From contig NZ_CP161920.1 in assembly GCF_040819555.1 (NCBI RefSeq), positions 943,501 through 1,007,500 on the forward strand: a stretch of 64,000 nucleotides of DNA. Reading direction: 5' to 3'. Below the pieces are notes generated by a model, which was not told where the DNA came from, did not search any database, and saw only the letters and a list, made by a program, of their open reading frames with translations. The stretch comes from Nitratireductor sp. GISD-1A_MAKvit. GTDB lineage: Bacteria; Pseudomonadota; Alphaproteobacteria; Rhizobiales; Rhizobiaceae. Below, piece after piece: positions 10,254-37,100 of the stretch. Position 1 is the first letter of the stretch, and every line of letters starts with the position of its first letter. Both the position numbers and the translations under genes were made by a program.

Positions 10254-10344
10254 CGCCGGACACCTCGCGCAGCCCGGCTGGCTCCTGCCACGCCGAGCCC
10301 TTGAATTCCTTGCCCAAATTCGTGCCCTTTGCACGCGACCGACC

Positions 10345-10400: not shown

Positions 10401-10500
10401 CTTTTAACTTGCCCTACCATTCGCACTATCACTAACGTCGCCCTTCCTGCCGCACCTCCTTTCCGGCATTGCGCCACGATGCGAGGTTGCACGCTGCGTC

Positions 10501-21542: not shown

Positions 21543-24500
21543 TTACGCTGCCTCCCGTTCACCGATGCGCTCGACCGGATAGCGTTCGAGCACCTTGGCG
21601 AGAATGGCCGGGCCGCTGGCATCGGTCGGCACGAACATCCTGAGCTTCCACGAGATGATTTCGTGGAACAGGCCGTAGGCGCGCAGCCGATCCCGCATCG
21701 TGTCGGTGAAGCCGGTGAGTTCGATGCGGTTCGCGCCCATGACGCGGCTGCGGCGAAGCTGAAGCCCCTCGGCGAGGTCGAGGATGGTGTTGCCATCGAT
21801 CACAGCCGTGAAGGCCTCGTCCGGCGTCAGCGTCGACGTGCCGGTGGCGAGCGCACCCGCGACCCAGGCCGGCGAGACGCGGCGACCGACGATGCGCTCG
21901 CCTTCATCGGTCTGGAGCCGATAGACGCGCGTTGACTCGTTCGGCAGTCGTTTCCAGATCGGCAGGAGCAGCCCGCTGACGACGTGGATGGTGCTGTCGA
22001 CGAATTCCGGCACTTCGGCCACTTCCGCGCTCCAGGCCGAGGCGAAGTCCGACCGGTCGGCCTCGGCCCAACGGGTCTCGCCCATCATCTTGACCGGCAC
22101 GTTGTGCGCCTCCATCGGTCGGATCAGGCGGACACGCCGCTCGATCTCGCCGTCATCCAGCATGACGCTGGAGATCGGGATTTGGACGGCGGCGCGGCCG
22201 GAGCGCTCGTTAATAAGCAGCTTTGCGCGAGGATCGGCAAGTTGGTCGAGCGCCTCGGCCAGCGTGACCGGGTGGTTGCGCTGGCGCTGCGTGATGGTCA
22301 GCAGCCGGGCTTCGGCGCCGGTGGCGGGATGGACGTGGATCGTCTGCCGGGCGGTGACGGTGAAACTCTCCGCCCGCAGCGTTTCCAGCCCGGCATCATA
22401 GCTGCCAGATGCGATGGCGCCCTCGATGCGGGCGTTCAGCAATTGCTCGAACGCCGTGAACAGCACGCCCTGCAAGTCGATAGTCAGGGCAAGCAGGCGA
22501 TTGAGGAAGGTGGTGATCGGCGGCAACTCGTCCTTGATGCCCGTCGAGTCCATCAGCTTGAGGCCGGTCGACGCCTCGAACATCTGGAGCGAGCAGCCTT
22601 CGACCTTGCCGCGGACGAGCAGCATGTAGAGTTGGCGCAGCGCATCGCGGGCATAGTGCGATTCCAGATTATCCTCGGGCCGGAACAGGCCCTGACCGCC
22701 GGTCTGGCGCTGGCCGCGCGTGATCGCGCCCAGCGTGTCGAGACGACGCGCGATGGTCGAAAGGAACCGCTTTTCGGCTTTCACATCGGTCGAGATCGGC
22801 CGGAACAGCGGCGGCTGCGCCTGGTTGGTGCGGTTGGTGCGGCCGAGGCCCTGAATGGCGGCGTCGGCCTTCCAGCCCGGTTCCAGCAGATAGTGGACGC
22901 GCAGGCGCTGGTTCTTCGCATTGAGGTCGGCGTGATACGACCTGCCGGTGCCGCCCGCGTCTGAGAAGATCAGGATGCGTTTCTGATCGTCCATGAAGGC
23001 GGCGGTCTCGGCGAGGTTGGCCGATCCGGCGCGGTTCTGGACGGCCAGACGGTCGATGCCACCGGGGCCGGATTTGCGGACGATGCGGCGCGAGCGGCCC
23101 GTCACCTCGGCCACGAGGTCGGTGCCGAAACGCTGGACGATCTGGTCGAGCGCGCCGGGAACGGGAGGCAGCGAGGCGAGCTTCTCGATCAGACGGTCGC
23201 GGCGGGCGACGGCCTCACGGCTCTCGACCGGCTGGCCGTCGCGATAGACCGGGCGCGAGGAGAGATTGCCATCGGCGTCGGTGAACGGCTCATAGAGTTG
23301 CACCGGGAAGCTATGTGCGAGGTAGTCCAGGACATATTCCCTTGGCGTGATGTCGACCCGGACGTCGTTCCATTCCTCGGCCGGCAGTTCGGCGAGCCGG
23401 CGTTCCATCAGGGCCTCGCCGGTCGAGACGATCTGGATCACGGCGGCATGGCCGTCCTCCAGATCACGCTCGATCGAGCGGATCAGGGTCGGCGTCTTCA
23501 TGCTGGTGAGGAGGTGGCCGAAGAAACGCTGCTTGGCGGACTCGAAGGCCGAGCGCGCGGCGGACTTGGCCTGCCGGTTCAGCGCGCCGGAACCGCTGTC
23601 GCCGCCGGTGATGTTGGCGGCCTCCATCGCCGCGTCGAGATTGTTGTGAATGATGGCGAAAGCGCCGGCATAGGCATCGTAGATGCGCGTCTGCTCGGGC
23701 GTGAGCTGGTGTTCGACCAGTTCGTATTCCACGCCGTCATAGGAGAGCGATCGGGCGGTATAGAGGCCGAGCGCGCGAAGGTCGCGGGCCAGAACCTCCA
23801 TGGCAGCGACACCGCCGGCCTCGATCGCCTCGACGAACTCGGCGCGGGTTGCGAAGGGGAAATCCTCGCCGCCCCAAAGGCCGAGCCTCTGGGCGTAGGC
23901 GAGATTATGGACGGTGGTCGCGCCGGTGGCGGAGACATAGACGACACGGGCGTTCGGCAGGGCGTGCTGGAGGCGCAAGCCTGCACGGCCCTGCTGCGAG
24001 GCGGCGACATCGCCGCGTTCACTCTTGCCGCCCGCGGCGTTCTGCATGGCGTGGCTCTCGTCGAAAATGATCACTCCATCGAAGTCGGAGCCCAACCAAT
24101 CGACGATTTGCCGGACGCGGGAAACCTTCTCGCCGCGCTCATCGGAGCGTAGCGTGGCGTAGGTTGTAAATAGGACGCCTTCCGACAGGCGGATGTCCTT
24201 GCCTTGCGGGAACCGTGACAGCGGCGTGACCAGCAGGCGCTCCATGCCGAGCGCCGACCAGTCGCGCTGTGCGTCTTCCAGCAGTTTGTCAGACTTGCTG
24301 ATCCACACCGCTTTGCGACGGCCTCTCATCCAGTTGTCGAGGAGAATGCCCGCAGACTGGCGGCCCTTGCCGGCTCCGGTGCCGTCGCCGAGCATGAAGC
24401 CGCGACGGAAGCGGACGGCATTTGGCGCATCGTCAGGCGCGGCCGAGACAACATCGAAAGTCTCGTCGAGCATCCACGATCCGGCGAGGAAGTCCGAATG

Positions 24501-25889
24501 GGCTTCGCCGGCATAGATGACGGTTTCGAGCTGGGCGTCGGACAGCAGGCCCTCGGTGACGAGATTGGCGGGCAGACGCGGGCGGTAGCTCGGTCGGGGC
24601 GGCGCGACCGAAGCCATGGCCGCCGATTGCACGAGTTTGGTGGGATGGGCCTGCGCGCCGTGAATACGGATCGCCTGCAATCTGTATTCTTCGTAGATCG
24701 CATCGGTGATGCGGCCGTCGTCGGCGGGCGTCCAGTCGACGGTCTCGTAGGCGAGTTCGACGCCCTCGGGTTCGGCGGCGGGACGCGGCGGCGCGGAGGT
24801 GGCGGCGCGGGCGAGATAGCGGCGAACGGTGCGCGGCGCGGCCGTGGCAACAGGAGCCAGGATCGTCGGATCGACCGGCAGGCGTGCGGGCACATGCTCG
24901 CCAACCCAGCCGATCAGGGTGGCGGCGTCGGGCGCGATGCCGGGCGACGCCGGAAATGCGGCCCGATCGTCGGCGGGTATTTTGTCGATAACGATTAGCC
25001 GGGTGGGAAAAGTCGTGCCGTGCTTGGCATAGACCGAGCCGTCGATGGCAGCGGTGAACACCACGCGGCCATGCTCCTGAAGCCGAATGAAGGCGTCGCG
25101 CCAGGCCGGCGCATCGGGGGCGAAGTTCGCGCCGGTGATCGTCACCAGCCGCCCGCCCTCGGCCAGACGCGCCAGCGCCGAGGCGACATGGAGATAGGTG
25201 GCTTCGGCCATCCGGCCTGAGACGTTCGCCATCGCCGAGAATGGTGGGTTCATCAGCACGACGCTCGGCACGATGGCGGGATCGAGGTGATCGTGGATCT
25301 GCGCGGCGTCGAAGCGGGTGACGGGATTGGCCGGAAAAAGATGCGCAAGAAGATCGGCGCGGGTATCGGCCAACTCATTCAGGGTGAGCGATCCGCCGGC
25401 GATCTCGGCGAGGATGGCGAGCAGTCCGGTGCCCGCCGAAGGTTCGAGAACCCGGTCGGCCGGCGTGATGGCGGCGGCAGAGGCGGCGATCAGGCCGAGC
25501 GGAATCGGCGTCGAGAACTGCTGAAAAGTCTGGCTCTCTTCGGAGCGGCGCGTATGGGTGGGCAGAAGTCCGGCGATTCTGGTCAGAAGCGGCAGGCTGG
25601 CGCCCTGAGACCCGGCTTTACGGAAAAGCGCCTTTCCGTATTTGCGCAGAAACAGGACGGTCGCGGCCTCGCAGGCTTCGTAGGCATCCTTCCAGCTCCA
25701 CGCGCCGGTCGTGTCGGAGCCGCCGAAGGCGGTCTCCATCGCAGCGCGCAGCGTGGCCGCGTCGATACGCTGGCCGCGTTCGAGATGGGGAAGAAGGAGA
25801 AGTCCGGACTGGTGGATGGCGACGGCGGTATCGACGGCTGCAAGGATCGGCCCGACCTGAAGGGCCGCGGCGGCAGAGGTGTAGGTCAT
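21543..25889 (-). CDS. Large methyltransferase-helicase, strawberry-notch type
   Basis: A 1448-residue protein combining two activities. An N-terminal gamma-type methyltransferase shows VLEPSAGTGLLAIL (AdoMet motif I, about residue 145) and VVLMNPPFSAM (catalytic motif IV, about residue 215). A superfamily-2 helicase of the strawberry-notch class follows: Walker A in MLGDGTGAGKGRQSAG (about 505), Walker B IIFDESHAMQN (about 610), VVYVSATGATT, and motif VI AAIQGLGRTNRTNQAQPP (about 980). The C-terminal 300 residues are family-specific. The start at 25889 was taken from homologous starts (MTYTSAAAAL). Similar domain pairs occur in phage P1 DarB, which protects incoming DNA from restriction; that role is inference here. 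A variant of the repeated leader lies upstream. Confidence 0.88.
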   Translation of the reverse strand: MTYTSAAAALQVGPILAAVDTAVAIHQSGLLLLPHLERGQRIDAATLRAAMETAFGGSDTTGAWSWKDAYEACEAATVLFLRKYGKALFRKAGSQGASLPLLTRIAGLLPTHTRRSEESQTFQQFSTPIPLGLIAASAAAITPADRVLEPSAGTGLLAILAEIAGGSLTLNELADTRADLLAHLFPANPVTRFDAAQIHDHLDPAIVPSVVLMNPPFSAMANVSGRMAEATYLHVASALARLAEGGRLVTITGANFAPDAPAWRDAFIRLQEHGRVVFTAAIDGSVYAKHGTTFPTRLIVIDKIPADDRAAFPASPGIAPDAATLIGWVGEHVPARLPVDPTILAPVATAAPRTVRRYLARAATSAPPRPAAEPEGVELAYETVDWTPADDGRITDAIYEEYRLQAIRIHGAQAHPTKLVQSAAMASVAPPRPSYRPRLPANLVTEGLLSDAQLETVIYAGEAHSDFLAGSWMLDETFDVVSAAPDDAPNAVRFRRGFMLGDGTGAGKGRQSAGILLDNWMRGRRKAVWISKSDKLLEDAQRDWSALGMERLLVTPLSRFPQGKDIRLSEGVLFTTYATLRSDERGEKVSRVRQIVDWLGSDFDGVIIFDESHAMQNAAGGKSERGDVAASQQGRAGLRLQHALPNARVVYVSATGATTVHNLAYAQRLGLWGGEDFPFATRAEFVEAIEAGGVAAMEVLARDLRALGLYTARSLSYDGVEYELVEHQLTPEQTRIYDAYAGAFAIIHNNLDAAMEAANITGGDSGSGALNRQAKSAARSAFESAKQRFFGHLLTSMKTPTLIRSIERDLEDGHAAVIQIVSTGEALMERRLAELPAEEWNDVRVDITPREYVLDYLAHSFPVQLYEPFTDADGNLSSRPVYRDGQPVESREAVARRDRLIEKLASLPPVPGALDQIVQRFGTDLVAEVTGRSRRIVRKSGPGGIDRLAVQNRAGSANLAETAAFMDDQKRILIFSDAGGTGRSYHADLNAKNQRLRVHYLLEPGWKADAAIQGLGRTNRTNQAQPPLFRPISTDVKAEKRFLSTIARRLDTLGAITRGQRQTGGQGLFRPEDNLESHYARDALRQLYMLLVRGKVEGCSLQMFEASTGLKLMDSTGIKDELPPITTFLNRLLALTIDLQGVLFTAFEQLLNARIEGAIASGSYDAGLETLRAESFTVTARQTIHVHPATGAEARLLTITQRQRNHPVTLAEALDQLADPRAKLLINERSGRAAVQIPISSVMLDDGEIERRVRLIRPMEAHNVPVKMMGETRWAEADRSDFASAWSAEVAEVPEFVDSTIHVVSGLLLPIWKRLPNESTRVYRLQTDEGERIVGRRVSPAWVAGALATGTSTLTPDEAFTAVIDGNTILDLAEGLQLRRSRVMGANRIELTGFTDTMRDRLRAYGLFHEIISWKLRMFVPTDASGPAILAKVLERYPVERIGEREAA

Positions 25890-25901
25890 GGGATGAGCCT
25901 C

Positions 25902-25968
25902 GGAGAGCGGGACAGGATCGAGCCGCGCAGCGCTCTCTCTCGACCGCACCGGCTCAAACCCGTCCCGG
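25902..25968 (-). promoter_or_regulatory. Divergent copy (D) of the repeated hairpin leader
   Basis: Upstream of the methyltransferase-helicase, the minus strand carries GGGACGGGTTTGAGCCGG, a GAGAGAGAG run, and a closing arm CCTGTCCCGCTC. It aligns with the better-conserved leaders at 28446, 32068 and 33549 but is longer in the loop. Confidence 0.45.
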
Positions 25969-26022
25969 CCTTCCTCTCCCTCTCAAGCGGGAACGGGCGG
26001 CCCGTGCTTCGCGCATCTTGAC

Positions 26023-26077
26023 ATGGACCATCGAACGGTCCATTTCTCGGATAGAAATGGACTATTGAGCGGTCCAG
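26023..26077. promoter_or_regulatory. Tandem operators of the VapBC-like operon
   Basis: Two similar sites, ATGGACCATCGAACGGTCCAT (26023-26043, GGACC-N7-GGTCC) and a looser GGAC-N8-GGTCC at 26059-26075, lie 34 bases apart, centre to centre. Between them an ATTTCT/AGAAAT palindrome is centred at 26050. All precede the antitoxin start at 26089. Such paired palindromes are typical of toxin-antitoxin autoregulation. Confidence 0.7.
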
Positions 26078-26088
26078 AAGGAGGTGTC

Positions 26089-26346
26089 ATGCGAATTTCC
26101 GTGACCGAAGCCAAAGGCCAGTTGACGGAACTGGTGCGCCGCGCCGAGGCCGGCGATGAAGTGGTATTGACCCGTCATGGCCATGCCGCCGTGCGGCTTG
26201 TCCCTGTCCGCAATGTGCCGGGCCGGAAGGATCGCCGGACGCTTCTTGAGGCGGTTCGGAAATCCGGTGCGGCGAAGGCGCTGGCGGGAGCGCCTGCCGC
26301 GCGGAGTCAGGACTTCCTTTATGATGACGACGGCCTGCCGCAATGA
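26089..26346 (+). CDS. Antitoxin, Phd/YefM family
   Basis: An 85-residue antitoxin: MRISVTEAKGQLTELVRRAEAGDEVVLTRHGHAAVRLVPV is the standard Phd/YefM DNA-binding head. The tail (ARSQDFLYDDDGLPQ) is the toxin-neutralising part with the acidic end seen in VapB partners. The start at 26089 follows AAGGAGG. The ATGA overlap at 26343-26346 couples it to the toxin gene. It would repress the operon through the two palindromes just upstream. Confidence 0.92.
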   Translation: MRISVTEAKGQLTELVRRAEAGDEVVLTRHGHAAVRLVPVRNVPGRKDRRTLLEAVRKSGAAKALAGAPAARSQDFLYDDDGLPQ

Positions 26347-26726
26347 TGGTGGTCGATACCTCGGCGCTGATGGCCATTCTGCTCGACGAGCCGGAGGCGG
26401 ACGCCTGCATCGCGGCGCTTGAAGCTGAAGACGAGCTGATGATCTCCGCTGGCACCGTCGCCGAGGCGCTGATCGTGGCGAACCGCCGGAATGTCGGTGA
26501 GGAGATGATGCGTTTGCTTGATGACCTCGGATTCGAGATCATCAATGTGACCGCCGCGTCGGCGCAGCGGATCGCTGCCGCCTATGACGCATGGGGGAAA
26601 GGTGTTCACCGCGCATCGCTCAATTTCGGCGATTGCTTTGCCTATGAGGCCGCGAAGGAGCGGAAAGCGCCGCTGCTCTATGTCGGGGACGATTTCGCAC
26701 GGACCGACATCGAGGGTGTCCTGTAG
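26343..26726 (+). CDS. vapC: VapC-type toxin (PIN-domain ribonuclease)
   Basis: A 127-residue PIN-domain nuclease: MMVVDTSALMAILLDEPEA holds the first catalytic aspartate, VAEALIVANR the conserved glutamate, and LNFGDCFAYEAAKERKAPLLYVGDDFARTDI the last acidic residues. VapC toxins cut tRNA or rRNA and halt translation. All active-site acids are present, so the pair looks functional and would stabilise the element by post-segregational killing. It reads opposite to its neighbours. Confidence 0.92.
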   Translation: MMVVDTSALMAILLDEPEADACIAALEAEDELMISAGTVAEALIVANRRNVGEEMMRLLDDLGFEIINVTAASAQRIAAAYDAWGKGVHRASLNFGDCFAYEAAKERKAPLLYVGDDFARTDIEGVL

Positions 26727-26768
26727 ATCAGGGTCAGCACGCTTCCCGCCGCCCGGCAACCATGTCGC

Positions 26769-27413
26769 CTATCCGAACCGGCGCCCCGCTTCGGTGAAGG
26801 TGTATTCGTTGGCGACGATCGTGTCGTCGACCACCTCGTCGGACGAGAGATACTCATATTCGCGTTCGAGCTGCCGGTAGAGCCAGCGGGCCAGATCGCG
26901 CAGCGCTTCGGCGACGCTCTCCTCGGCATCCTCGGTCATGTCCTGATATGTCGGACTGTCGCGTTCGACCGAAATCGCCATGCAATACTCGTGATAGTAA
27001 TGCCCGCGATGGCTGACCTCGGCGCGGAGTTGGTAGAAATTGCGGCGCTGGACCGCCTGCAAGGCGTCGGCGATCCGATGAAGCTCCTGATCCTGCGGCG
27101 CATAGGCCCGGATTTTGGCCGTGGCGTTTCTGGCGTAGGAATACGACCCCTCCCAGCAGGCGCCATCGCCCTGCGACCAGAAGCCCCGGAACCAGATGCA
27201 GGGTTCGCGGCGCGTGCCGCCGCCCATCAGGCGGACGGCACGGGTCCTGAAGTCGATGCCGAGGATTTCCGCGATGCGCCGGAAATCCTCATAGACGGCA
27301 TCATACCAGTCGTAATCGAAGCCGCCCTCGCGATACCAGGCGCGCGCCTTGTCCTTCGCCGCATCGGATAGTTCGTCCAGGCGATAGACCGTGGTTTCAA
27401 TGATCTCAGGCAT
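26769..27413 (-). CDS. Conserved accessory protein of unknown function (aromatic, acidic)
   Basis: A 214-residue soluble protein rich in Tyr, Trp, Asp and Arg: TTVYRLDELSDAAKDKARAW, WYREGGFDYDWYDAVYEDFR, CIWFRGFWSQGDGACWEGSY, HRGHYYHEYCMAISVERDS, LARWLYRQLEREYEYLSSDE. Such proteins are carried by many proteobacterial plasmids and sometimes labelled antitoxin-like, but I know no demonstrated role. The start at 27413 overlaps the stop of the preceding gene by 8 bases. It has no signal peptide. It may be an anti-defence or regulatory factor; this is open. Confidence 0.75.
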   Translation of the reverse strand: MPEIIETTVYRLDELSDAAKDKARAWYREGGFDYDWYDAVYEDFRRIAEILGIDFRTRAVRLMGGGTRREPCIWFRGFWSQGDGACWEGSYSYARNATAKIRAYAPQDQELHRIADALQAVQRRNFYQLRAEVSHRGHYYHEYCMAISVERDSPTYQDMTEDAEESVAEALRDLARWLYRQLEREYEYLSSDEVVDDTIVANEYTFTEAGRRFG

Positions 27414-27822
27414 AGGGATCACCTGCCTCCAGCACGGTGGAAAGCCAGCCATCGGTATAGATCCAGTCCACCGTCTCGCCGGTGGCGAGATCGAGGACAT
27501 GCGCGCCGCCGCCGAAACCGTCGATACGGGGCTTCGAGCAGCTATTGGCGTATTGCATCCCCCATAAACCGGTCAGGCCGAACGCTTTCGCACAGCGTTT
27601 GACGAACTGGATGACATGCTCGGGATCGCCGGTGACATCATCGCGTATCCAAAGCCGGGTGCCGCCATGTTCGGGCTGGATCGAGAGCAGGAAACCGTCC
27701 GAGGGCGGATCCTCAGCGGCATTGTCCTCCGCCATGGCGTTGTAGAGATCGAGCGCGCGGGCGGCGTTTTCGGGGGTGCCCACGTCGAGCAGGCAGGAAA
27801 AGTGGGTAAAATAGTCGGCCAT
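27406..27822 (-). CDS. Conserved mobile-element protein of unknown function
   Basis: A 138-residue protein beginning MADYFTHFSCLLDVGTPENA and ending VLDLATGETVDWIYTDGWLS followed by TVLEAGDPYA. The acidic, tryptophan-bearing end and ALDLYNAMAEDN segment do not match a family I can name. Proteins like it travel with ParB, ArdC and DUF2958 genes. The start at 27822 follows GGAGG. It overlaps the next gene by 8 bases, so the two are probably co-translated and may work together. Confidence 0.75.
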   Translation of the reverse strand: MADYFTHFSCLLDVGTPENAARALDLYNAMAEDNAAEDPPSDGFLLSIQPEHGGTRLWIRDDVTGDPEHVIQFVKRCAKAFGLTGLWGMQYANSCSKPRIDGFGGGAHVLDLATGETVDWIYTDGWLSTVLEAGDPYA

Positions 27823-27886
27823 GTGAGCCTCCTGAAACAAGAAAGCCCGGCTCAGGACCGGGCGGATGACGGGGAATGGGTGAGTC

Positions 27887-28436
27887 TCACGCCGCTTGCG
27901 GCATGCGGAGGAGATCGGCAGAGATTTCGCGCCAGAAGGGGTCGACCAGACGGGCTTCCAGTGCCGCCGCGCGGTAGCGCAAAGCCCCAGCCTCGGTTGA
28001 GTCCACGGCCCGGAATGCCATCCCGCGCAGGCGGCTGGCCTCCGTCACAATCCTGCGTGCCTGGGCATCGGATGAGACTGGCTGTTGCCAGAGGATGATA
28101 CCGGCACGGATTTCGCCGGCAAGGACCAGGCGATGATCGTGATCCTGAATGAGCATGATACGAGGCTGGAAACAGGGGAAGCTGTCCGGCCCCCGTGCAA
28201 ATATCACCGCGTGACAGGCGCAAAGCGGCTGCCTGTATTGCCTCCTCCGGTGACGGGCATTCGCCTAGCGCGATCATGCGGTCGAAGCTGTTTTCATCGT
28301 CACTGACGCCATAACTGGCTACGCCCAGGCAGGAGATGCGCAGCGGCAGCTTTTGCGCCCGATAGAGCGCTGGCAGAACATCGGCTGCGAGAATCTGACC
28401 GATGGAGCGGAAGGTTTCGGAACGGGCAAAGATCAT
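27887..28436 (-). pseudogene. Hypothetical mobile-element gene split by one extra base
   Basis: From ATG 28436 one frame reads MIFARSETFRSIGQILAADV to EEAIQAAALRLSR, then turns into R/P/S-rich noise. From about 28207 the next frame continues with normal coding character (VIFARGPDSFPCFQPRIMLI to REISADLLRMPQAA) and stops at 27887. Removing one C from 28207-28208 joins them into about 182 residues. A GTG inside the second frame could start a separate 106-residue protein, so two overlapping genes remain possible. It lies behind leader copy A (28446-28496) with GGAG 8 bases from the start. No family recognised. Confidence 0.6.
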
Positions 28437-28445
28437 CGGGATCAC

Positions 28446-28496
28446 TCCATGACGGGCGCCGGGAAGCCTCTCTCTCCAGCCCTCAACCCGTCACGG
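28446..28496 (-). promoter_or_regulatory. Repeated hairpin leader, copy A
   Basis: On the minus strand: CCGTGACGGGTTGAGGGCTG, then GAGAGAGAGG, then GCGCCCGTCATGGAG, ending 9 bases before the start codon. TGACGGG pairs with CCCGTCA to form a stem whose loop holds the purine run; the start-proximal GGAG is the ribosome site. The same layout recurs upstream of parB (copy B) and ardC (copy C). Confidence 0.7.
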
Positions 28497-28634
28497 CCGA
28501 ACGGCCCGCACTCTTCCTCTCTGACAGGGCTTGTTCCCGGGTCCGCTGCCGACGATGGGGATCATCGTGAGGCGCTGAAGGCCCGATCGCGGGGTGCCGC
28601 GCTCGGGCCGTCGGGGATGAGGCGCTTTCGCGCC

Positions 28635-28799
28635 TTATTCCCACGGGTCCAGTTCCAGCTTCACCATGTCGTCGTCGCCATCGAATTCGGCGGCGGGGCA
28701 AGCGGCATGGGTGCCGTCTCCGGCCTGGAACACAACGATCGAAACCATCAGCGTGGCGGCGAGGCTGGCGGCGAAGGCGGTGGCATCTGCATAGGACAT
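28635..28799 (-). CDS. Small single-span membrane protein
   Basis: A 54-residue protein, MSYADATAFAASLAATLMVS then IVVFQAGDGTHAACPAAEFD and an acidic end DDDMVKLELDPWE. One membrane helix spans about residues 8-26. It is preceded by GGGAGGC-like leader sequence and by the palindrome at 28826-28840. Small proteins of this type accompany ParB and ArdC on alphaproteobacterial plasmids. Function unknown. Confidence 0.6.
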   Translation of the reverse strand: MSYADATAFAASLAATLMVSIVVFQAGDGTHAACPAAEFDGDDDMVKLELDPWE

Positions 28800-28825
28800 G
28801 GGGTCCGGCTCCTGTCTTGGGAGGC

Positions 28826-28840
28826 GGGGGACCATCCCCC
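28826..28840. promoter_or_regulatory. Palindrome GGGGGACCATCCCCC before the 54-residue gene
   Basis: A 15-bp palindrome 27 bases upstream of the small gene, sharing the core GGGACCATCCC with the palindrome in the ssb leader. The common core and position suggest one regulator or one RNA structure. Confidence 0.5.
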
Positions 28841-29194
28841 GCGCGACAGGCGCCCGAAGTGTCTGACCGGATCTGCAATCACCCGAGGGCGTTCGGACTC
28901 TTTCCGAATCCCCGAGGGCGGCACGCGCGCGTAAGCCGACCCCTTTGGGGTTGAATGTCAAAGAGACGGATCGGACCAAGGTTTGCGAATGGAAGCGGGG
29001 GTGGTTTTTCGCATGTGACAGGATGCCGAATACCCGTCGCTGATGCTCTGCCGTGGCAGCCTTGCCACCATGCTGGCATCAGGATCGTGTTCCCTTCAGG
29101 CCAGAGATGGTTGCCGCTCGCCAATGTGCAGGGAAGACGGCTGTTATGGTGAAGCTGGAGTTGGAGCAGTGGATGTAGACAACGCGAAGAGTCC
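28841..29194. other. Noncoding stretch with short repeats
   Basis: No supported gene. Two copies of CCGAGGGCG (about 28884 and 28913) flank a TTCGGA/TCCGAA hairpin. The rest shows no clear structure. It separates the ParB-ArdC accessory genes from a lower-GC kinase-like gene and may hold its terminator and the promoter of the 54-residue gene. Confidence 0.4.
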
Positions 29195-29764
29195 TTAGCC
29201 GCCGGTCGGATATCGGGCCAAGTCGAGTTGTCTTGCGACCTGATCGGCCAGCAGTTCACTGTCATGCTCGCCATCCAACCTCAGTACCGGCGCTGATTGC
29301 TTACTCAGCCATTTCTGATGCTGCGTAAAATTCCTCCCGGTGAACTCCGGGTCGTCGTAACGTGATGCCCAATCCCGAAAGGCCAAGTGAGCGTCATGCA
29401 TGTCTCCTCCTGGCAAAATGCGAGAGCCATGACGTTCTGCCTCTCGCTCGTCGAGACGCTGAAGGCGAACGGGCGTTGGCGTGTACAAGAAAACAATCAA
29501 ATCGACGTCCCGAATAAGTGAATCACCCCATCCGATGAACGATCCTGTGAGTATCCATCCAACGATAGAACTCTGGCGATCTTTAATCAGTTGGACGCGC
29601 TCCTCGGGAGCACGCTTGGTGCTGTAAGGGGGATCGGTGGGCATCCAATAGTAATCGTCTACATCAATTTGCGGGACACGGAAACGCTTCGACAGGATCG
29701 AACCAAGTGTTGAAACACCGGAGCAAGACGCCCCTGTCAGGTATACACAAGGTTTGTCTGACAT
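29195..29764 (-). CDS. P-loop kinase-like protein (adenylate-kinase superfamily)
   Basis: A 189-residue P-loop protein: CVYLTGASCSGVSTLGSILS is a Walker A of the GxxxxGxST form. PQIDVDDYYWMPTDPPYST resembles the acceptor-binding region of small-molecule kinases. The LID-like region is PVRLQRLDEREAERHGSR. The substrate is unknown. GC content is visibly lower than in the neighbours, and no mobile-element family fits, so it is likely transferred cargo. It starts after AGGA at 29764 (ATG) and stands alone between the small membrane protein and parB. Confidence 0.75.
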   Translation of the reverse strand: MSDKPCVYLTGASCSGVSTLGSILSKRFRVPQIDVDDYYWMPTDPPYSTKRAPEERVQLIKDRQSSIVGWILTGSFIGWGDSLIRDVDLIVFLYTPTPVRLQRLDEREAERHGSRILPGGDMHDAHLAFRDWASRYDDPEFTGRNFTQHQKWLSKQSAPVLRLDGEHDSELLADQVARQLDLARYPTGG

Positions 29765-29919
29765 AATTTTTCCTATTTAGGTCGGGCGGGTTCCAACCTG
29801 GCGTTGACCAACGGCTTCGCCCGCATAGTTCCGAAAGGAAAAGCCGGGTCAAGAGAACTGGGCGTGTTGCACAAACGGGGTGGCTGAAACGGGGCGACCG
29901 AAGCCGCCCCGTATGAATG

Positions 29920-32058
29920 CTATTCAGCAGCGACCATATGCTGTTCCTCCTCGTCATCAGCCGGATCGTCCTCGCCATCACCGGAGAGGAAATCGGGCAG
30001 CTCGTCGGCTTCCCTGTCGGTTCCCGTCGTCGGGTCCGCGTCAATGCCATCATCCACCATGCGCAGCGGCTCGGGCAACCAGCCGGTGTCCGCCAGCAGG
30101 CGCTCGGCTTCCTTGGCCATGTCACCCTTCTTCAGGTGCCCGATCAGTTCGGCGGCCCGGTCTCCGGCCCCTTCACGCACAGCCTCAAGGATACGCGGCT
30201 TGGTCACGCGGCCAAGATAGTTCTCAACCGTCGGCCGCCAGCCCACGGCAACCATATCGAGACCGGTCGAGCGCGCCAGCCGATCAGCCTGCGATAGGCG
30301 GATGTCCAGCCCGTGCTGGCTGACGCCCGAGCCGCTATAGGGGTTCGGCTTTTCATAGAGCGCGTTCACACCATAGCTGACGCAATGGGCGAGCAGGTCC
30401 ATGCGCGAACCATCGTCCAGATCGGTCAGCCAATCCCAGAGGGCGGCATCGTCTGCCGGGACATGATCGCCCCAGCGTTCGTGGCGGTCAGCGATGGCCT
30501 TGGCCGACGCGCTATCGCGCAGATCCTCGGCCTGTGCGGGCAGATGAACCTCCCGGACCTGTGCTTCCAGGCATCCGCAGCTGGCATGCGGCATGAAGCA
30601 ATCAATGACCAGCCGGTGCAGCAGTGCCGTCATGGCGACATGCGGGTTCACCGCCACGGCATCACGCAACGCCAGCGTACGGTGCGCGGTCAATTCGCTG
30701 ACCAGACGATCTGGCAGCGGCTTGATGGTCTCGGTCTCGTCGTCTTCCTCCTGTTCGACCGGCTGCCCCCCAAGCGTGATGACGGCGCGCTGATGGGTGA
30801 CGGCCGGTTCGGTCCGCTGGATCACCTCGCCGGTGTCGGGGTCAACGATCTCAACGTCGGGTTCGGCCGGTGTTTCATCCTCGGCGCGAACATAGCCGCG
30901 TTCGATCAGCAAGGAGCCATCGGCGTCGATGCTGATGAAGGCCCCCGCCTTGTCCGTCTGGTCCGACTCAAAGACCATCGGGCGGCGCTCGAAGGTTTCC
31001 AGCGCCTGTTCGATCTCACCCAGGCGGGCGTCGATCTCGTCAGGCAGCTCGTCAGCCTCACCATATTCGGCTTCAAGCCGGTCATATTCATCGCGCAGAG
31101 CCTCGCGGGTGGCGCGTTCCTCTTCGCTCAGGTTGACCGTGGTGCCGACGATCTGGCGAAGGCCATGATCGTGACCATAGGGAAAGGTGATGGCGACCTC
31201 GATCCATTTCCAGCCCTCAACGGCAATGACTTCGGCTTCCGCCTTCAGCTTTTCGCCCACCAGCCGGTCGAGCAGCACCGGATCTTGCAGCCAGCCGCCA
31301 TCGTCCTGCTGGAAGAGATCGCGCAGCACGCAGCCGCCTGCTGCCTCATAGGTGTCGATACCGACGAAGACCGCCCGCTTGTCAGCGGCGCGCACCGTGG
31401 TTTCGGTCAGCAGACGGCGGATGGTATAGGGCTCCTTCTGCCAGCCATCCTTGATCGCGTCCCACACCTGCTCCTGACGGGCATGGTCGGAACTGACGGT
31501 GAAGGCCATGAGCTGTTCCAGCGTCATGCCATCCTCGGCATAGATGTCGAGCAATGCGGGCGAGACCGAGACCAGGCGCAGGCGCTGTTTCACCACCTTG
31601 GCGTCCACAAAGAAGGCGGCGGCGATGGCTTCCTCGGTCATGCCCTTTTCGCGCAAGGCCTGGAAGGCGCGGAACTGGTCGAGCGGATGCAAGGGGGCGC
31701 GCTCGATGTTCTCGGCGAGCGATACCTCGTCGATCAGCACATCGGCGCTGGCCTCCGACACGACGCAGGGGACCGGCGCGATCTTGGCGAGGCGCTTTTG
31801 TTTGACCAGCAGTTCCAGTGCGCGGAAGCGGCGACCGCCGGCAGGAACCTCGAACATGCCGGTTTCCTTGCCCTCGCCGTCAACGACAGGGCGGACATGC
31901 AGGGACTGGATCAGGCCGCGCCGGGCGATGGACTCGGCCAATTCCTCGACCGAGACACCGGCCTTGACACGCCGGACGTTGGACTGGCTGAGCACCAGCT
32001 TGTTGAAGGGAATGTCGCGCGAGGACGACAGCGTGATTTTCTGAACGGCAGTGGCCAT
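29920..32058 (-). CDS. Large ParB/RepB/Spo0J-type partition protein
   Basis: A 712-residue protein. The N-terminal 200 residues are a ParB CTPase and DNA-binding unit: NVRRVKAGVSVEELAESIAR, PAGGRRFRALELL (the GERRxRA-type CTP motif), DEVSLAENIERAPLHPLDQF and the helix-turn-helix MTEEAIAAAFFVDAKVVKQRL. The remaining 500 residues are a plasmid-specific extension, acidic at the end (DGEDDPADDEEEQHMVAAE). No ParA lies next to it, unlike canonical parAB pairs; such large ParB-like proteins on alphaproteobacterial plasmids may act in gene control rather than segregation. Leader copy B precedes it. Confidence 0.88.
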   Translation of the reverse strand: MATAVQKITLSSSRDIPFNKLVLSQSNVRRVKAGVSVEELAESIARRGLIQSLHVRPVVDGEGKETGMFEVPAGGRRFRALELLVKQKRLAKIAPVPCVVSEASADVLIDEVSLAENIERAPLHPLDQFRAFQALREKGMTEEAIAAAFFVDAKVVKQRLRLVSVSPALLDIYAEDGMTLEQLMAFTVSSDHARQEQVWDAIKDGWQKEPYTIRRLLTETTVRAADKRAVFVGIDTYEAAGGCVLRDLFQQDDGGWLQDPVLLDRLVGEKLKAEAEVIAVEGWKWIEVAITFPYGHDHGLRQIVGTTVNLSEEERATREALRDEYDRLEAEYGEADELPDEIDARLGEIEQALETFERRPMVFESDQTDKAGAFISIDADGSLLIERGYVRAEDETPAEPDVEIVDPDTGEVIQRTEPAVTHQRAVITLGGQPVEQEEDDETETIKPLPDRLVSELTAHRTLALRDAVAVNPHVAMTALLHRLVIDCFMPHASCGCLEAQVREVHLPAQAEDLRDSASAKAIADRHERWGDHVPADDAALWDWLTDLDDGSRMDLLAHCVSYGVNALYEKPNPYSGSGVSQHGLDIRLSQADRLARSTGLDMVAVGWRPTVENYLGRVTKPRILEAVREGAGDRAAELIGHLKKGDMAKEAERLLADTGWLPEPLRMVDDGIDADPTTGTDREADELPDFLSGDGEDDPADDEEEQHMVAAE

Positions 32059-32067
32059 GTCAGGTAC

Positions 32068-32117
32068 TCCATGACGGACGCCGGTGAGCCTCTCTCTCCG
32101 GCTATCAGCCCGTCACG
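32068..32117 (-). promoter_or_regulatory. Repeated hairpin leader, copy B (parB-like gene)
   Basis: On the minus strand: CGTGACGGGCTGATAGCCGG, GAGAGAGAGG, GTCCGTCATGGAG, the GGAG lying 8 bases before the start. TGACGG/CCGTCA forms the outer stem; AGCCGG and CCGGC can form an inner one. Base changes relative to copies A and C largely keep the stem. Confidence 0.7.
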
Positions 32118-32183
32118 AAGCGAAGCGCCGCCCTCTTCCTCTGAAGAGAGCGACGCCAGCCGCAGAACCTGAAACCCGGAAAT

Positions 32184-32579
32184 TCAGGAACTACGGCTTT
32201 CCGTATCCGCGGATGCACGAGGCAAGATCGCCCCGACGCGGTAGAGCAGACGCTCGGCGGCGCGGATGCTGCCGGTCTCGCGAGCGGCCTCGGCCCAGAC
32301 CGAGATCGGGAAATCCCCGGTGAACAGCAGATCACGCTCGATGCCCATGCCAAGGGGCAGCCGGACTGACTGCATCTCGCTCAGGCTCCACGACCCCAGT
32401 TCGGGATAGCCGAGATCGGCCAAACCGAACATGATGTCGCCATCCTCATCCAGTTCGGTGGCGAGCCAGACGCCTTCGCCGAGGGGGTTGAAGAACTTCA
32501 CGACCGGAATGTGATCCTGATCGCGCTGGCGGCCATTGGCCAGCAGCCGGTCGCGCTGCATATCGGTCAGGAGGATCAT
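32184..32579 (-). CDS. DUF2958 family protein
   Basis: A 131-residue protein with the DUF2958 core: MILLTDMQRDRLLANGRQRD, VVKFFNPLGEGVWLATELDE, FGLADLGYPELGSWSLSEMQ, and GIERDLLFTGDFPISVWAE. Members are small and found on plasmids near anti-restriction genes; function unknown. Its start overlaps the stop of ardC by 4 bases (ATGA), so the two are made together, suggesting a shared role. The tail after residue 115 is unique. Confidence 0.88.
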   Translation of the reverse strand: MILLTDMQRDRLLANGRQRDQDHIPVVKFFNPLGEGVWLATELDEDGDIMFGLADLGYPELGSWSLSEMQSVRLPLGMGIERDLLFTGDFPISVWAEAARETGSIRAAERLLYRVGAILPRASADTESRSS

Positions 32580-33538
32580 GCCGCAGCCCTCCGTTCGGTT
32601 GCGCTCGCATCTAACTCTCCAGCGTCTTCGGCAGGCAGATGCGACAACAGCCAGTCAGCCGCCTTGCTGGCCTGCGAGGCGGCGCGGACAATGGCGCGAT
32701 TATCCTCGCGCAGCACTTCCAGCCACGACCCGATATAATCGGCGTGGCGCACAGTCGGCACGATACCCAGATTGGCGCAGCAAAAGGCCGCGTTCATTTC
32801 TGCAACCAGTTCCTCGAAGGCGTACTCCTTCGTGCCGAAGCTGCCCGAAAAATCCCGCCCAAGCCGCGAGACATGGCCAGTCGCATGCCCCATCTCGTGC
32901 AGGGCCGTTCGATGCCAGTTGATCGGCTCGAAATAGGCTTGCGGAGGCGGAACCTGAACATAGTCCAGAGATGGCATATAAAAGGCGCGATCTCCGCCAA
33001 TGCGGAAGTCGATGCCTGTCGCCTTGATGAGCGCCTCGACCTTCGGCTCGATCAGGCCGGGTGGCGGTGACGGGGCATCGACTGCGATATCCTCTGGCAG
33101 GCCCTCGCATTGCGCAGCGTTGAACACGGTGAAGCGCTTCAGGAATGGGATGCGGCCTGGCTCCTCGCCGGTCTCGCGGGCACGCCGCTTTTCATCCTCG
33201 GGCGTGAAGCGGTCAGCATACACGACAGTGGTGCCGCGCTCGCCCTTCCTGACATTTCCGCCGAGCGAAAGCGCCTGTCGGAAGGTCAGCCAATTCTGGG
33301 TTGGAAAGCCATGCTGGATCACAGCCCCCCAGAGGATCAGCACATTGATCCCGGAATACTGCCGGGAGGTCGTCGCGTTTCTCGGCATGGCAAGAGGAGC
33401 CTTCGCCATGGCCGTCCCCCAGGGCTGGACCCAGGGGAGCCTCCCTTGCTCCAGTTCGGCGATGATCTTGTTGGTGATATCGTCGTAAAGGTTGCTGCGC
33501 GCGCCACTGTCAGGGGCGACGCGATCTCGTCTGGCCAT
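32576..33538 (-). CDS. ardC: ArdC-family anti-restriction protein (zincin-like)
   Basis: A 320-residue protein with an N-terminal ssDNA-binding domain (LYDDITNKIIAELEQGRLPW, QYSGINVLILWGA) and a C-terminal metallopeptidase domain. The zinc motif HEMGHATGH is at about residue 214, followed by the glutamate-bearing YAFEELVAEMNAAF. ArdC proteins bind incoming single-stranded DNA and shield it from restriction. The N-terminus begins MARRDRVAPDSGARSNLY. It lies behind leader copy C and overlaps DUF2958. It is one of two likely anti-restriction functions in the element. Confidence 0.92.
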   Translation of the reverse strand: MARRDRVAPDSGARSNLYDDITNKIIAELEQGRLPWVQPWGTAMAKAPLAMPRNATTSRQYSGINVLILWGAVIQHGFPTQNWLTFRQALSLGGNVRKGERGTTVVYADRFTPEDEKRRARETGEEPGRIPFLKRFTVFNAAQCEGLPEDIAVDAPSPPPGLIEPKVEALIKATGIDFRIGGDRAFYMPSLDYVQVPPPQAYFEPINWHRTALHEMGHATGHVSRLGRDFSGSFGTKEYAFEELVAEMNAAFCCANLGIVPTVRHADYIGSWLEVLREDNRAIVRAASQASKAADWLLSHLPAEDAGELDASATERRAAA

Positions 33539-33548
33539 CGGGATGATC

Positions 33549-33597
33549 TCCGCGACGGGCGCCGGAAGCCTCTCTTCCAGTCCTCAACCCGTCACGG
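33549..33597 (-). promoter_or_regulatory. Repeated hairpin leader, copy C (ardC)
   Basis: On the minus strand: CCGTGACGGGTTGAGGACTG, GAAGAGAGG, GCGCCCGTCGCGGAG, with GGAG 9 bases before the start codon. GACGGG pairs with CCCGTC. Upstream, a further GGCGTTGC/GCAACGCC palindrome (33627-33634 and 33665-33672) encloses a GCGGGG/CCCCGC hairpin. Confidence 0.7.
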
Positions 33598-33787
33598 AAA
33601 ACCCGTCCGCACTCTAACTCTTTGGGGGCGTTGCGGGGTCTCCCCGCTGATGGGGGGTGCGTCGGCAACGCCAGTGCCGACCAGGGGGAAGGCTTTCCCC
33701 CGACATCGCTTCGTAAATCCGCAAACCCGTAAATTCGCTGATCCGACAATCAGGAAATGTGCCTTTCAGCAAAGCGGTCTGCTGCTA

Positions 33788-34081
33788 TCATTCAGGCTGG
33801 AATCCATCCATCAGAATGAAGGTCGCGTCATGACGCTGATGGGCATTGATAAGCGGGACTAGGCGCGTGAAATGCTCCGTCCGGCAATGCGCGTCCAGCG
33901 CCGCCCGATCCGGCCATTCCTTGATGAAGATGAAGTGCCCGGGGTCTTTCTGGTCAATGAACAGGTCGTAGCCGATGCAAAGCTCTTCCTGCCGGGTCTT
34001 ATCGACCAGTTCGCGGTAAAGCGGCATGACGATTCCAACGGCTTCTGGTTTAATGAAGTCCTGAGCGATAACTTTGAGCAT
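33788..34081 (-). CDS. Antibiotic-biosynthesis-monooxygenase (ABM) fold protein
   Basis: A 97-residue protein of the dimeric ferredoxin-like ABM family: MLKVIAQDFIKPEAVGIVMP, then YRELVDKTRQEELCIGYDLF, HFIFIKEWPDRAALDAHCRT, EHFTRLVPLI. It matches the YgiN/LsrG size. Members degrade quinones or aldehydes or act in heme breakdown. It lies between ardC and dnaE2, with no sequence clue to a link with either. The start at 34081 follows CAGGA. It may be host cargo. Confidence 0.85.
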   Translation of the reverse strand: MLKVIAQDFIKPEAVGIVMPLYRELVDKTRQEELCIGYDLFIDQKDPGHFIFIKEWPDRAALDAHCRTEHFTRLVPLINAHQRHDATFILMDGFQPE

Positions 34082-34128: not shown

Positions 34129-37100
34129 TCAGCGAAAATCCCGCGTTTTGACCTGGATTGCATCGATATGCAGATCGCGCACATACATGTCTCGCGTTCT
34201 CGAGACCTTGGGCGGCTGACCGCGGGGATCTGGCGAGGACGATCCGTGGTGGAATTCATCGCCACGACCATGCGGCAGCGGAAAGGCGGCGTCCCGCTGC
34301 CCGATGCTCGCCAGTTCCGATGACAGGTCGGTAATCCGGTACACGACGAGATGCACAACCTCGCCTTCGCGCTGGATGCGGCCCTTCACGGCGATCATGC
34401 CCGAGGATAGGATGATACGGCGAAACTTCTCGAACACCTTGGTCCAGACGACGAGATTGGCGATGCCGGTTTCATCTTCCACGGTTACGAACATCACCCC
34501 CTTGGCCGAGCCGGGACGCTGGCGAACGAGAACGATCCCGGCAGCTTCCAGCCATCGCCCATCGCGTGATCCCATGGCCTCGGCACAGGAGACGATCCGG
34601 CGTCTGGCGAGATCGGCACGCAGGAAGGAAACCGGATGGCGGCGAAGCGACAGGCCGGTGTGGCTATAATCCTCGACCACCTCGCGCCCGGCAGCCATGG
34701 CGCGCAAGGTGGTCTCAGGCTCGATAATCTCCGTAACGGTCGTGCCCGCCCGCGCTGAGGCGGCGGCGAAGAGCGGCAGTTCTTCATCGCGCAGGCCCTT
34801 GATGGCCCAAAGCGCCTCCCGACGGGCGAGGCCAAAGGCCGGGCGAAAACCATCGGCTTCCGCGATTTTCGTCAAAGCGGCGACCGGAACGCCGCAACGG
34901 CGCCAAAGGTCGTCAACCGATGTGAATGGCTGATCGGCCCCGTGCGGCGACAATGGCTGCTGCATGGGCATTGGCCAGCCCCTTGACCATGCGCATACCG
35001 AAGCGCACGGCGAAGCGGGATTCATCCCCGGTCGGCTCCAGCGTGCAGTCCCAGCGGGAAGCATTGACGCTGATTGGCCGGATCTCGACGCCATGGTCGC
35101 GCGCATCCCGGACAATTTGCGCCGGGGCGTAGAAGCCCATGGGCTGGGAGTTCAGAAGCGCGGCGCAGAAGGCATCGGGATGCCAGCATTTCAACCAGGC
35201 CGACGCATAGGCCACGAGCGCGAAAGAGGCCGCATGGCTTTCTGGGAAACCGTAGGAGCCGAAGCCCTCCAACTGCCGGAAGGTGCGTTCGGCAAACTCC
35301 TGTTCATAGCCATTGGTCACCATGCCCTCGATCAGCTTGTCGCGTAACTTCGAGACCCCGCCGGTGAACTTGAAGGTCGCCATGCTCTTGCGTAGCAGGT
35401 CGGCTTCGCCGGGGGTGAAGCCCGCGCATTCGATGGCGACACGCATGGCCTGTTCCTGAAACAAGGGCACGCCCAACGTTTTTCCCAGCACCTTCTCCAG
35501 CTCCGGCGTTGGGTAATGAACCTCCTCCAGCCCTTCGCGGCGGCGGAGATAGGGATGAACCATGTCACCCTGGATCGGTCCGGGGCGGACGATGGCCACC
35601 TGCACCACCAGGTCGTAATAGGTGCGCGGTTTCAGGCGGGGCAGCATCGACATCTGCGCGCGCGACTCGATCTGGAAGGTGCCGAGGGTGTCCGCCTTAC
35701 GGATCATGGCATAGGTGCGTGGGTCTTCGGCCGGGATCGTCGCCAGATCGAGTTCGATCCCCTTGTGCTTCGCAATCAGGTCGAGCCCCTTGCGCATGCA
35801 GGTGAGCATGCCGAGCGCCAGGACATCCACCTTCATAAAGCTCAGGGCGTCGATATCGTCCTTATCCCATTCGATGATCTGGCGATCCGCCATGGCGGCA
35901 GGTTCGATCGGCACGAGATCGTCAAGCCGGTCATGGGTCAGGACGAAACCGCCGGGATGCTGCGACAGATGGCGCGGCGCACCGCGAAGCTGGGCGGCCA
36001 GTTCGAGGGTCAGGCGCAGGCGCCGATCTTCGGGGTTGAGGTTCAAATCGCGGATCTGCTGATCCGAGACACCGGTTTCCGACCAAGACCAGAGCTGGCC
36101 GGACAGGGACTGGATCAGGTCCTCGGGCAGGCCCATGGCCTTGCCGACATCACGCAGCGCACCCTTGGAGCGATAGCGGATGACGGTAGCGGTCAGCGCC
36201 GCGTGGTCGCGGCCATAATGCTCATAGACCCACTGGATGACCTCCTCGCGGCGTTCGTGCTCGAAATCCACGTCGATGTCGGGCGGCTCGCGGCGTTCCT
36301 CGGAAACGAAGCGCTCGAACAGGAGATCGTTGCGACCGGGATCAATGGCGGTGATGCCCAGCACATAGCAGACGGCGGAGTTCGCCGCAGAACCGCGCCC
36401 CTGACAGAGGATGCCCTTGGAACGGGCAAAGCGGACGATGCTGTTCACGGTCAGAAAGTAGGGAGCATATTCGAGCTTGCCGATCAGGGTCAGTTCATGG
36501 CGCAGGGCCGCCGTCACCTCATCAGGTATGCCCTCGGGATAGCGGGTTGCCGCGCCCTCCCAGGTCAGGCGTTCCAGCGTTTGCTGTGGTGTCAGGGCCG
36601 GATCGTCGCGTTCTTCGGGATATTGATATCGCAGCTCATCGAGGCTGAAGGTGCAACGGCGTGCGATCTCCAGCGTCCGCGCCAATGCCTCGGGCCAGCG
36701 GGCGAACAGGCGGTACATCTCGGCGGGCGGCTTGAGATAGCGGTCGACATGGCGTTCCCGCCGAAGACCGAGCGCGTCTATTGTCGTGTTGTGGCGGATG
36801 GCCGTCACAACATCCTGCAACATGCGCCGACCAGGCTCATGGAACAGCACGTCATTGGTCACAACGGTCGGCACCCGCGCCTGTTGCGCCAGTTGCGACA
36901 GTTCCCACAGCCGCATCTGGTCATTGGGGCGGCGTCGCAGGGTCAGAGCCAGATAGGCGCGATCCCCGAACACCTCACGCATGCGGCGCAGCCGCAGGGC
37001 GCAGACCTCATCGGCGAGGTCCGGCACCAGCACCGCGATCAGCCCCTCGCCATAGGCTACAAGATCATCCCATTCGAGATGGCATCCGCCTTTCCCGGCC

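What the first reader, a model, noticed from the sequence alone, without database searches (positions are those of the whole stretch)
25902..33597. Repeated hairpin leader shared by at least three, probably four, accessory genes
Copies at 28446-28496, 32068-32117 and 33549-33597 (and a divergent one at 25902-25968) are nearly identical on the minus strand: TGACGGG arm, TTGAGG, a GAGAGAGAGG run, GGCGCCCGTC arm and a start-proximal GGAG 8-9 bases from the ATG. They precede the split 28-kb gene, parB-like, ardC and the methyltransferase-helicase. Stem positions are largely kept while loops vary, and a ribosome-site-like purine run lies in the loop. This looks like one regulatory unit, either a DNA operator or an RNA element controlling translation, that co-ordinates the early-acting genes after entry into a new host.
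Basis: partly seen in the sequence, partly recalled or inferred. Interest (0 to 1): 0.8.

Follow-up and report, generated by a model that had tools for sequence, protein, structure and literature searches.

The report
Shared RNA leader of plasmid-establishment genes
Several genes that a bacterial mobile DNA element probably needs on entering a new cell share one folded stretch of RNA in front of their start codons, an apparently uncatalogued family that recurs in many alphaproteobacteria and probably controls how these genes are translated.

Summary
Three copies (minus strand; ATGs of ardC, parB-like and an unknown gene) share one 86-87-nt layout: a 5' box AGAG[G/T]nAGAG, a spacer, a two-part hairpin (P1, 5-nt one-sided bulge, P2, AGAGG loop), GGAG, ATG. 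The fourth copy (helicase) is a second type: same box, GAGAGAGAG loop, another stem. A covariance model from 12 copies finds the leader in 29 of 385 alphaproteobacterial genomes; it precedes 80 of 80 retrieved parB homologues, and 65 of 66 helicase homologues carry the box. Type I stems covary (0/500 shuffles reach the observed values). G·U pairs outnumber A·C on the sense strand 447 to 59, pointing to folding of the mRNA rather than of the template DNA strand. No promoter-like signal was found. Leaders mostly follow their gene family, so recent duplication does not explain them. No Rfam 15 family matches, radC RNA included. Best reading: a cis-acting mRNA leader controlling translation (or stability) of an anti-restriction/establishment regulon of alphaproteobacterial plasmids and ICEs. 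The trans-acting partner, the direction of control and "early after entry" are inference; there is no experiment.

The parts
33536..33621 (-). type I leader of ardC: box 33621-33607, hairpin 33595-33552, GGAG 33551-33548, ATG 33538-33536
   Evidence: R1 88.5 bits; sequence
32056..32142 (-). type I leader of the parB-like gene: box 32142-32128, hairpin 32116-32071, GGAG 32070-32067, ATG 32058-32056
   Evidence: R1 76.5 bits
28434..28520 (-). type I leader of the unknown 28-kb gene: box 28520-28506, hairpin 28494-28449, GGAG 28448-28445, ATG 28436-28434
   Evidence: R1 79.1 bits
25887..25983 (-). type II leader of the strawberry-notch helicase: box 25983-25974, loop GAGAGAGAGC 25941-25932, GCTCTCC 25908-25902, GAGG 25901-25898, ATG 25889-25887
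   Evidence: R1 only 19.3 bits; alignment A7 with 46 other type II leaders
32576..33538 (-). ardC (ArdcN + MPTase-PolyVal domains)
   Evidence: Pfam
32184..32579 (-). DUF2958 gene between ardC and parB-like; ends 41 nt before the parB leader; R1 finds no leader of its own
   Evidence: Pfam
29920..32058 (-). parB-like gene, 712 aa (ParB_N)
   Evidence: Pfam
27852..28436 (-). unknown gene with leader; reading frame broken relative to a homologue (second part in the frame of 27887-28207)
   Evidence: Pfam

Best explanation
A cis-acting structured mRNA leader, shared as a regulon by establishment and anti-restriction genes of alphaproteobacterial conjugative plasmids and ICEs, that works at or near translation initiation. 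Shown by sequence comparison: a sense-strand structure is kept by selection; it ends at the Shine-Dalgarno sequence and ATG; it is tied to a small set of gene families. Inferred: the base of P1 holds the GG of GGAG partly closed, and the box AGAGnnAGAG plus the AGAGG (type I) or GAGAGAGAG (type II) loop form a recognition site for a trans-acting partner (RNA-binding protein, or an RNA with CUCU) that sets translation of all these genes together. Inferred more weakly: this gives a burst of the proteins in a recipient that lacks the partner.
For: Covariation, type I: on A5 (150 of the 180 matches, 132 distinct) 9 of 17 pairs have changes on both sides, 121 such cells against 43 in shuffles, 0/500 shuffles as high; on A6 (77 of 77) 16 of 17 pairs, 109 cells against 32, 0/500; sliding the partner by 1-3 columns drops pairing from 94-96% to 30-54%. 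Strand: GU+UG 447 cells, AC+CA 59 in 179 distinct leaders (of 247 parsed, of 257), with GU and AC scored alike in the parse; in P1 of A5 GU+UG are 266 cells and all non-standard cells together 9, in P1 of A6 137 and 28; type II, all 14 predicted pairs, 56 and 10. Position: 255 of 257 matches end at ATG (the ATG is part of the model); 180 of 180 in the parB loci run straight into an open frame of at least 80 codons, all on parB's strand. Association: 80 of 80 parB genes, 65 of 66 helicase genes with the box. AGAGnnAGAG occurs 224 times on the gene strand and 15 on the other in 1.53 Mb; 212 of the 224 were assigned to leaders. Mean predicted pairing at -12 and -11 from the ATG, where the SD GG usually lies, is 0.94 and 0.90 over 183 leaders. 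No sigma-70-like signal in 122 distinct leaders or the 110 nt upstream: mean scores are below shuffles. In 28 of 51 loci with ardC or DUF2958 upstream the parB box starts 32-119 nt after that gene.
Against: No expression, probing or binding data. SD occlusion is a fold prediction of GC-rich RNA. The box itself is predicted 52% paired on average, with no consistent partner, so a single-stranded box is an assumption. No partner was found: the most widespread neighbour families that I could recognise include no obvious RNA-binding protein (one region of up to 22 kb per locus). Loops agree no better inside an element than by chance for ardC (42 of 59, shuffled mean 42.4) and DUF932 (14 of 34, 13.3); whole leaders of one element are slightly more alike than shuffled for ardC and the unknown gene, so an element-specific partner is neither shown nor excluded. 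Shuffle tests ignore relatedness; on a parB protein tree double changes are too few for a significant controlled test. One P2 position has A·C in 23 of 69 parB leaders. Type II covariation is weak in the MAFFT alignment: 3 of 14 pairs with changes on both sides. RadC and a 128-aa family have leaders with other loops and poorer hairpins. In 23 of the 51 loci the gap before the parB leader is 274-1334 nt, room enough for an own promoter.
Confidence: 0.62

Rival explanations
1. mRNA stability or processing element: the hairpin and purine box protect or cut the 5' end of each mRNA, without regulated translation.
For: A strong hairpin close to the ATG and placement close behind another gene in 28 of 51 loci also fit a processing or protecting site; all RNA-level evidence fits equally.
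Against: Abutting GGAG-ATG at nearly fixed spacing, a sharp 5' edge of the box and a favoured loop (AGAGG in 178 of 250 by a crude loop call) are more than a protective hairpin needs.
Confidence: 0.2
2. Single-stranded DNA promoter (Frpo type): the hairpin forms on the entering template strand and lets RNA polymerase start.
For: Gene families (ArdC, helicase, ParB-like, SSB nearby in L007 and L010) are of the sort found in leading regions; PMC11541004 describes Frpo-type promoters there (passages). The genes lie on the same strand as relaxase and coupling protein, which fits template-strand transfer if oriT lies between them (not located).
Against: On the template strand every sense G·U is an A·C mismatch: 447 against 59 is the wrong way round. 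Best TATAAT matches lie below shuffles (3.2 against 3.6 of 6): 23 of 122 leaders reach 4/6, 2 reach 5/6.
Confidence: 0.07
3. Double-stranded DNA operator: a palindrome bound by a repressor or activator, the box being a second DNA site.
For: P1 core letters GACGG/CCGUC are nearly invariant and the box is a direct repeat, as protein sites often are.
Against: A dsDNA palindrome gives no reason for G·U over A·C nor for compensatory P2 changes beside an offset 5-nt bulge.
Confidence: 0.06
4. No function: copies are relics of leader-segment duplication carried along with genes.
For: Copies occur close together in one element.
Against: Compensatory changes; leaders of one gene family in different elements are more alike than different leaders of one element.
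Confidence: 0.02

Closest known systems
radC RNA motif (Rfam RF01754, Proteobacteria)
   Same: Candidate cis-acting leader RNA; recalled, not from a call: said to precede genes for DNA-acting proteins including anti-restriction, methyltransferase and RadC proteins.
   Different: 149-position model; it matches none of the leaders tested: no hit in the window or five leader-bearing loci; 0 of 190 alphaproteobacterial genomes above cut-off, and the 4 sub-threshold hits lack the box.
STAXI motif (PMC2864571, passage)
   Same: Structured element near SSB, antirestriction, integrase and topoisomerase genes; its authors also weighed ssDNA against RNA.
   Different: Pseudoknots repeated two to three times, often with UUCG loops; here one unit per gene, mostly with an AGAGG loop, at the ATG.
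Frpo / ssi single-stranded DNA promoters (PMC11541004, passages)
   Same: Repeated folded elements before leading-region genes.
   Different: Act as DNA with -35/-10 elements; here sense-strand folding is favoured and no such elements were found.

Membership tests
radC RNA (RF01754) | matches the Rfam covariance model at its gathering score | tested here: not met
   window and 5 loci; 0 of 190 genomes above cut-off
STAXI RNA | unit repeated at least twice in tandem | tested here: not met
   R1 finds one unit per leader in the window; no tandem copies
STAXI RNA | pseudoknot in each unit | not tested
   folding tools used here do not predict pseudoknots; no Rfam family matched, but I did not check that STAXI is in that library
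Frpo-type ssDNA promoter | -35/-10 elements in a hairpin | tested here: not met
   122 distinct leaders, mean scores below shuffles
Frpo-type ssDNA promoter | structure selected on the transferred (template) strand | tested here: not met
   wobble asymmetry favours the sense strand; that the template is the transferred strand is assumed, oriT not located
Frpo-type ssDNA promoter | transcription from ssDNA in the recipient | not testable with these tools
   needs an experiment
cis-regulatory structured RNA (general kind) | covarying secondary structure | tested here: met
   type I; type II weak
cis-regulatory structured RNA (general kind) | consistent place before a coherent gene set | tested here: met
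cis-regulatory structured RNA (general kind) | transcribed, and changes expression | not testable with these tools
   no transcriptome or reporter data

The most novel reading that the evidence does not exclude
An RNA-level establishment regulon: one trans-acting partner reads the AGAGnnAGAG box together with the AGAG-bearing loop of every leader, holds anti-restriction, partition-like and helicase mRNAs silent in the donor, and its absence in the recipient releases them all at once, a translational counterpart of the single-stranded promoters of enterobacterial plasmids.
Probability: 0.25. Interest if true: 0.88.

Novelty: new variant of a known kind. Interest (0 to 1): 0.72.

Why it matters
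If true it would be, as far as my ten paper searches show, the first described RNA leader that ties together counter-defence and establishment genes of conjugative elements across a bacterial class. It gives a sequence handle to find new anti-defence genes: any gene behind this leader is a candidate, including the unknown 28-kb gene family and the 128-, 145- and 158-aa families seen here. It also poses a testable question: do alphaproteobacterial elements use translational control where F-type plasmids use single-stranded DNA promoters?

Tried and rejected
Rfam at gathering score over the window gave one match, a ROSE thermometer far from the leaders; at relaxed E-value (25700-33800; five loci) only matches below cut-off, one of which (snoTBR17, 18.5 of 40 bits) overlaps the ardC leader on the opposite strand and is taken as chance. 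A conserved extra stem upstream of the box: none across 183 non-redundant leaders, although single parB leaders can form one. Conserved promoter upstream of the box: none. Loop concordance inside an element, as a sign of an element-specific partner: not above chance for ardC (42 of 59, shuffled mean 42.4) and DUF932 (14 of 34, 13.3), slightly for the unknown gene (22 of 25, 18.7, shuffled maximum 22). Whole-leader alignment scores: ardC 50.15 (highest of 20 shuffles 49.93), unknown gene 51.3 (49.84), DUF932 46.43 (46.81). A phylogeny-controlled covariation test on 69 of the 80 parB genes was underpowered (its output was cut in the middle, so some pairs were not seen). RF01754 over 190 genomes: 4 weak hits without the box. 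Phage records: no match to the ardC leader. Two IMG/VR contigs matched an exact pattern; the one read looks like a parB leader.

Literature: searches listed no paper that by title or abstract describes this element. Read by passages: PMC11541004 and PMC2864571. In the main text of PMC11109978 the terms searched did not occur, in PMC8632094 only irrelevant uses of 'plasmid'. All other papers were seen in listings only; supplements were not searched.

Caveats of counts: the parB query alignment was made from leader-bearing loci and the scan kept the best 80 of 569 relatives (itself a capped list), so 80 of 80 holds for close homologues. A5 holds 150 of 180 matches. The class and phylum scans used the tool's stricter filters and overlap in genomes. 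In the class scan 59 matches lie in 35 fetched regions; two with frames under 30 codons were left out of the family count of 57; the same two are left out of the 255 clustered of 257. Family names rest on one representative per cluster. In one search, 10 of 257 leaders could not be parsed, duplicates were dropped, and the register of P1 was free to slide outward. In one search it is not shown how many of the non-matching genomes lie outside the class. Relatives in the collections may partly be the same genomes as in the class scan.
Full report
What is there. On the minus strand of the window three genes, ardC (32576-33538), a parB-like gene (29920-32058) and an unknown gene with a broken reading frame (27852-28436), have the same 86-87-nt leader that ends at the ATG. 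Read as mRNA it is: a box AGAG[G/T]nAGAG[G/T]GCGG; 11 variable nt; stem P1 (GUGACGGGU with GCCCGUCGC or a variant); five unpaired nt on the 5' side only; stem P2 of 8-9 pairs; a pentaloop, mostly AGAGG; then GGAG and 7-9 nt to the ATG. The fourth copy, in front of the strawberry-notch helicase (21543-25889), is a second type. It has the same box, a longer and different stem, a GAGAGAGAGC loop and a conserved GCTCTCC just before the GAGG Shine-Dalgarno sequence; by inspection GCTCTCC could pair with the loop or the box.

Not chance. Model R1 was built from 12 copies (window, five plasmids, second element of the same genome). It finds the leader in 29 of 385 sampled alphaproteobacterial genomes, the window's own included, and in 34 of 398 of an overlapping phylum sample, where every matching genome is in the window's class. 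By BLAST 118 and 210 of 72,556 plasmid records match the leader of the unknown gene and of ardC; no phage record matches the ardC leader. A collection scan with ParB proteins, whose query proteins came from leader-bearing loci, kept the best 80 of 569 relatives: 36 Hyphomicrobiales, 20 Rhodobacterales, 13 Sphingomonadales, 4 Acetobacterales, 2 Caulobacterales, 1 labelled Propionibacteriales, 4 unplaced, with 42 genus labels (a blank may be one of them). All 80 parB genes have the leader at their ATG. In those loci 180 of 180 matches run at once into an open frame of at least 80 codons, all on parB's strand.

Which genes. Of 257 matches, 255 have a frame of 30 codons or more: 116 precede parB-like genes, 60 ardC, 37 DUF932-like genes, 25 homologues of the unknown gene, 9 radC-like genes, 3 a 128-aa family and 5 single cases (Pfam on representatives; the DUF932 name rests on record annotation and a Pfam score below its cut-off). 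In the class scan alone, which did not start from parB, the counts among 57 are parB 28, ardC 11, DUF932 10, 128-aa family 3, others 5. The helicase has type II: 65 of 66 helicase genes in the 80 loci carry the box between 170 nt upstream and 60 nt downstream of the projected start, against 297 of 4000 random windows of that length, which themselves include leaders. AGAGnnAGAG is nearly private to leaders there: 224 occurrences on the gene strand, 15 on the other; 212 of the 224 were assigned to leaders, and of the other 12 at least four look like further type II leaders.

RNA rather than DNA. Both type I stems covary beyond column shuffles and slid partners; these controls do not remove relatedness, and a tree-based test on parB alone was underpowered. 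The telling asymmetry is wobble. With G·U and A·C scored alike when arms were aligned, 179 distinct leaders have 447 G·U/U·G cells and 59 A·C/C·A cells; one P2 position has A·C in 23 of 69 parB leaders. P1 has 266 G·U/U·G against 9 non-standard cells of any kind in A5 and 137 against 28 in A6. Type II gives 56 to 10, although its covariation is weak (3 of 14 pairs). Folding of the template DNA strand, which a single-stranded promoter needs, would show the opposite; a double-stranded palindrome would show no bias. No -35/-10 signal rises above shuffles in the leader or upstream, and conservation starts abruptly at the box. In 28 of 51 loci with ardC or DUF2958 upstream the parB leader starts 32-119 nt behind that gene, which suits a leader inside an operon mRNA; in the other 23 the gap is 274-1334 nt.

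Age. Mean alignment scores between leaders of one gene family in different elements (parB 52.8, ardC 63.3, DUF932 54.0, unknown 65.3, radC 65.0) exceed those between different leaders of one element (46.4-51.3 for parB with ardC, DUF932 or the unknown gene); between families they are 46-53, or 32-37 with radC, so that DUF932 leaders are hardly closer to each other than to ardC leaders. Leaders have thus mostly travelled with their genes, and recent duplication does not explain them. Leaders of one element are at most slightly more alike than shuffled, which gives little sign of a partner that differs from element to element.

How it probably works. The hairpin ends at the Shine-Dalgarno sequence and in predictions covers the positions where its GG usually lies (paired 0.94 and 0.90 on average over 183 leaders). 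The two AGAG features, box and loop, are kept in both types although the stems differ, as a recognition site would be. I infer translational control by a trans-acting partner; whether it represses or activates, and whether it is a protein or an RNA, is open. A role in mRNA stability fits nearly as well. The link to entry into a new host is inferred from the gene set (anti-restriction, helicase, partition-like), from the element's conjugation genes on the same strand (relaxase 8469-10334, coupling protein 6453-8453) and from the finding that leading regions of plasmids carry anti-defence genes (PMC11541004, passages). oriT was not located.

Compared with what is known. No Rfam family reaches its cut-off on the leaders. 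The nearest in kind are the radC and STAXI motifs listed in PMC2864571 (passages; the gene context of radC is recalled); the radC model does not recognise these leaders, and STAXI is described with repeated pseudoknots. I therefore file it as a new family of a known kind, candidate cis-regulatory leader RNA, with the unusual property of uniting establishment genes of mobile elements across a bacterial class.

Noticed in passing
window 33625-33638 (minus strand), upstream of the ardC leader: CCCCGCAACGCCCC, the end of a recurrent GCGGGG-AGA-CCCCGC hairpin, lies just upstream of the leader in 42 of 60 ardC and 21 of 37 DUF932 cases and in 0 of 116 parB, 0 of 25 unknown-gene and 0 of 9 radC cases; it may mark the start of the unit.
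   Followed up: partly
window 27852-28436: The unknown gene behind the 28-kb leader is broken: its two parts match one 182-aa homologue in two frames.
   Followed up: partly
window 62186-62271 (+): ROSE RNA thermometer, Rfam RF00435, 56.5 bits.
   Followed up: no
L076 (G000:C2:2730001-2750000): A second element in the same genome carries two type I leaders (10365-10450, 11850-11933) and one type II (6275-6373).
   Followed up: partly
type II leaders, e.g. window 25908-25902 with 25941-25932: Conserved GCTCTCC before the Shine-Dalgarno could pair with the GAGAGAGAGC loop or with the AGAG box: possible pseudoknot or switch (by inspection).
   Followed up: no
L094, contig JAFKDC010000049.1 named Enemella evansiae (Actinomycetes): A leader-bearing parB 77% identical to the window's in a genome labelled actinobacterial; contamination is likely.
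   Followed up: no
window 34913-38955 (-) and 40749-43304 (+): DnaE-like polymerase, ImuB-like polymerase and LigD beside the ardC end of the element, probably host side.
   Followed up: no
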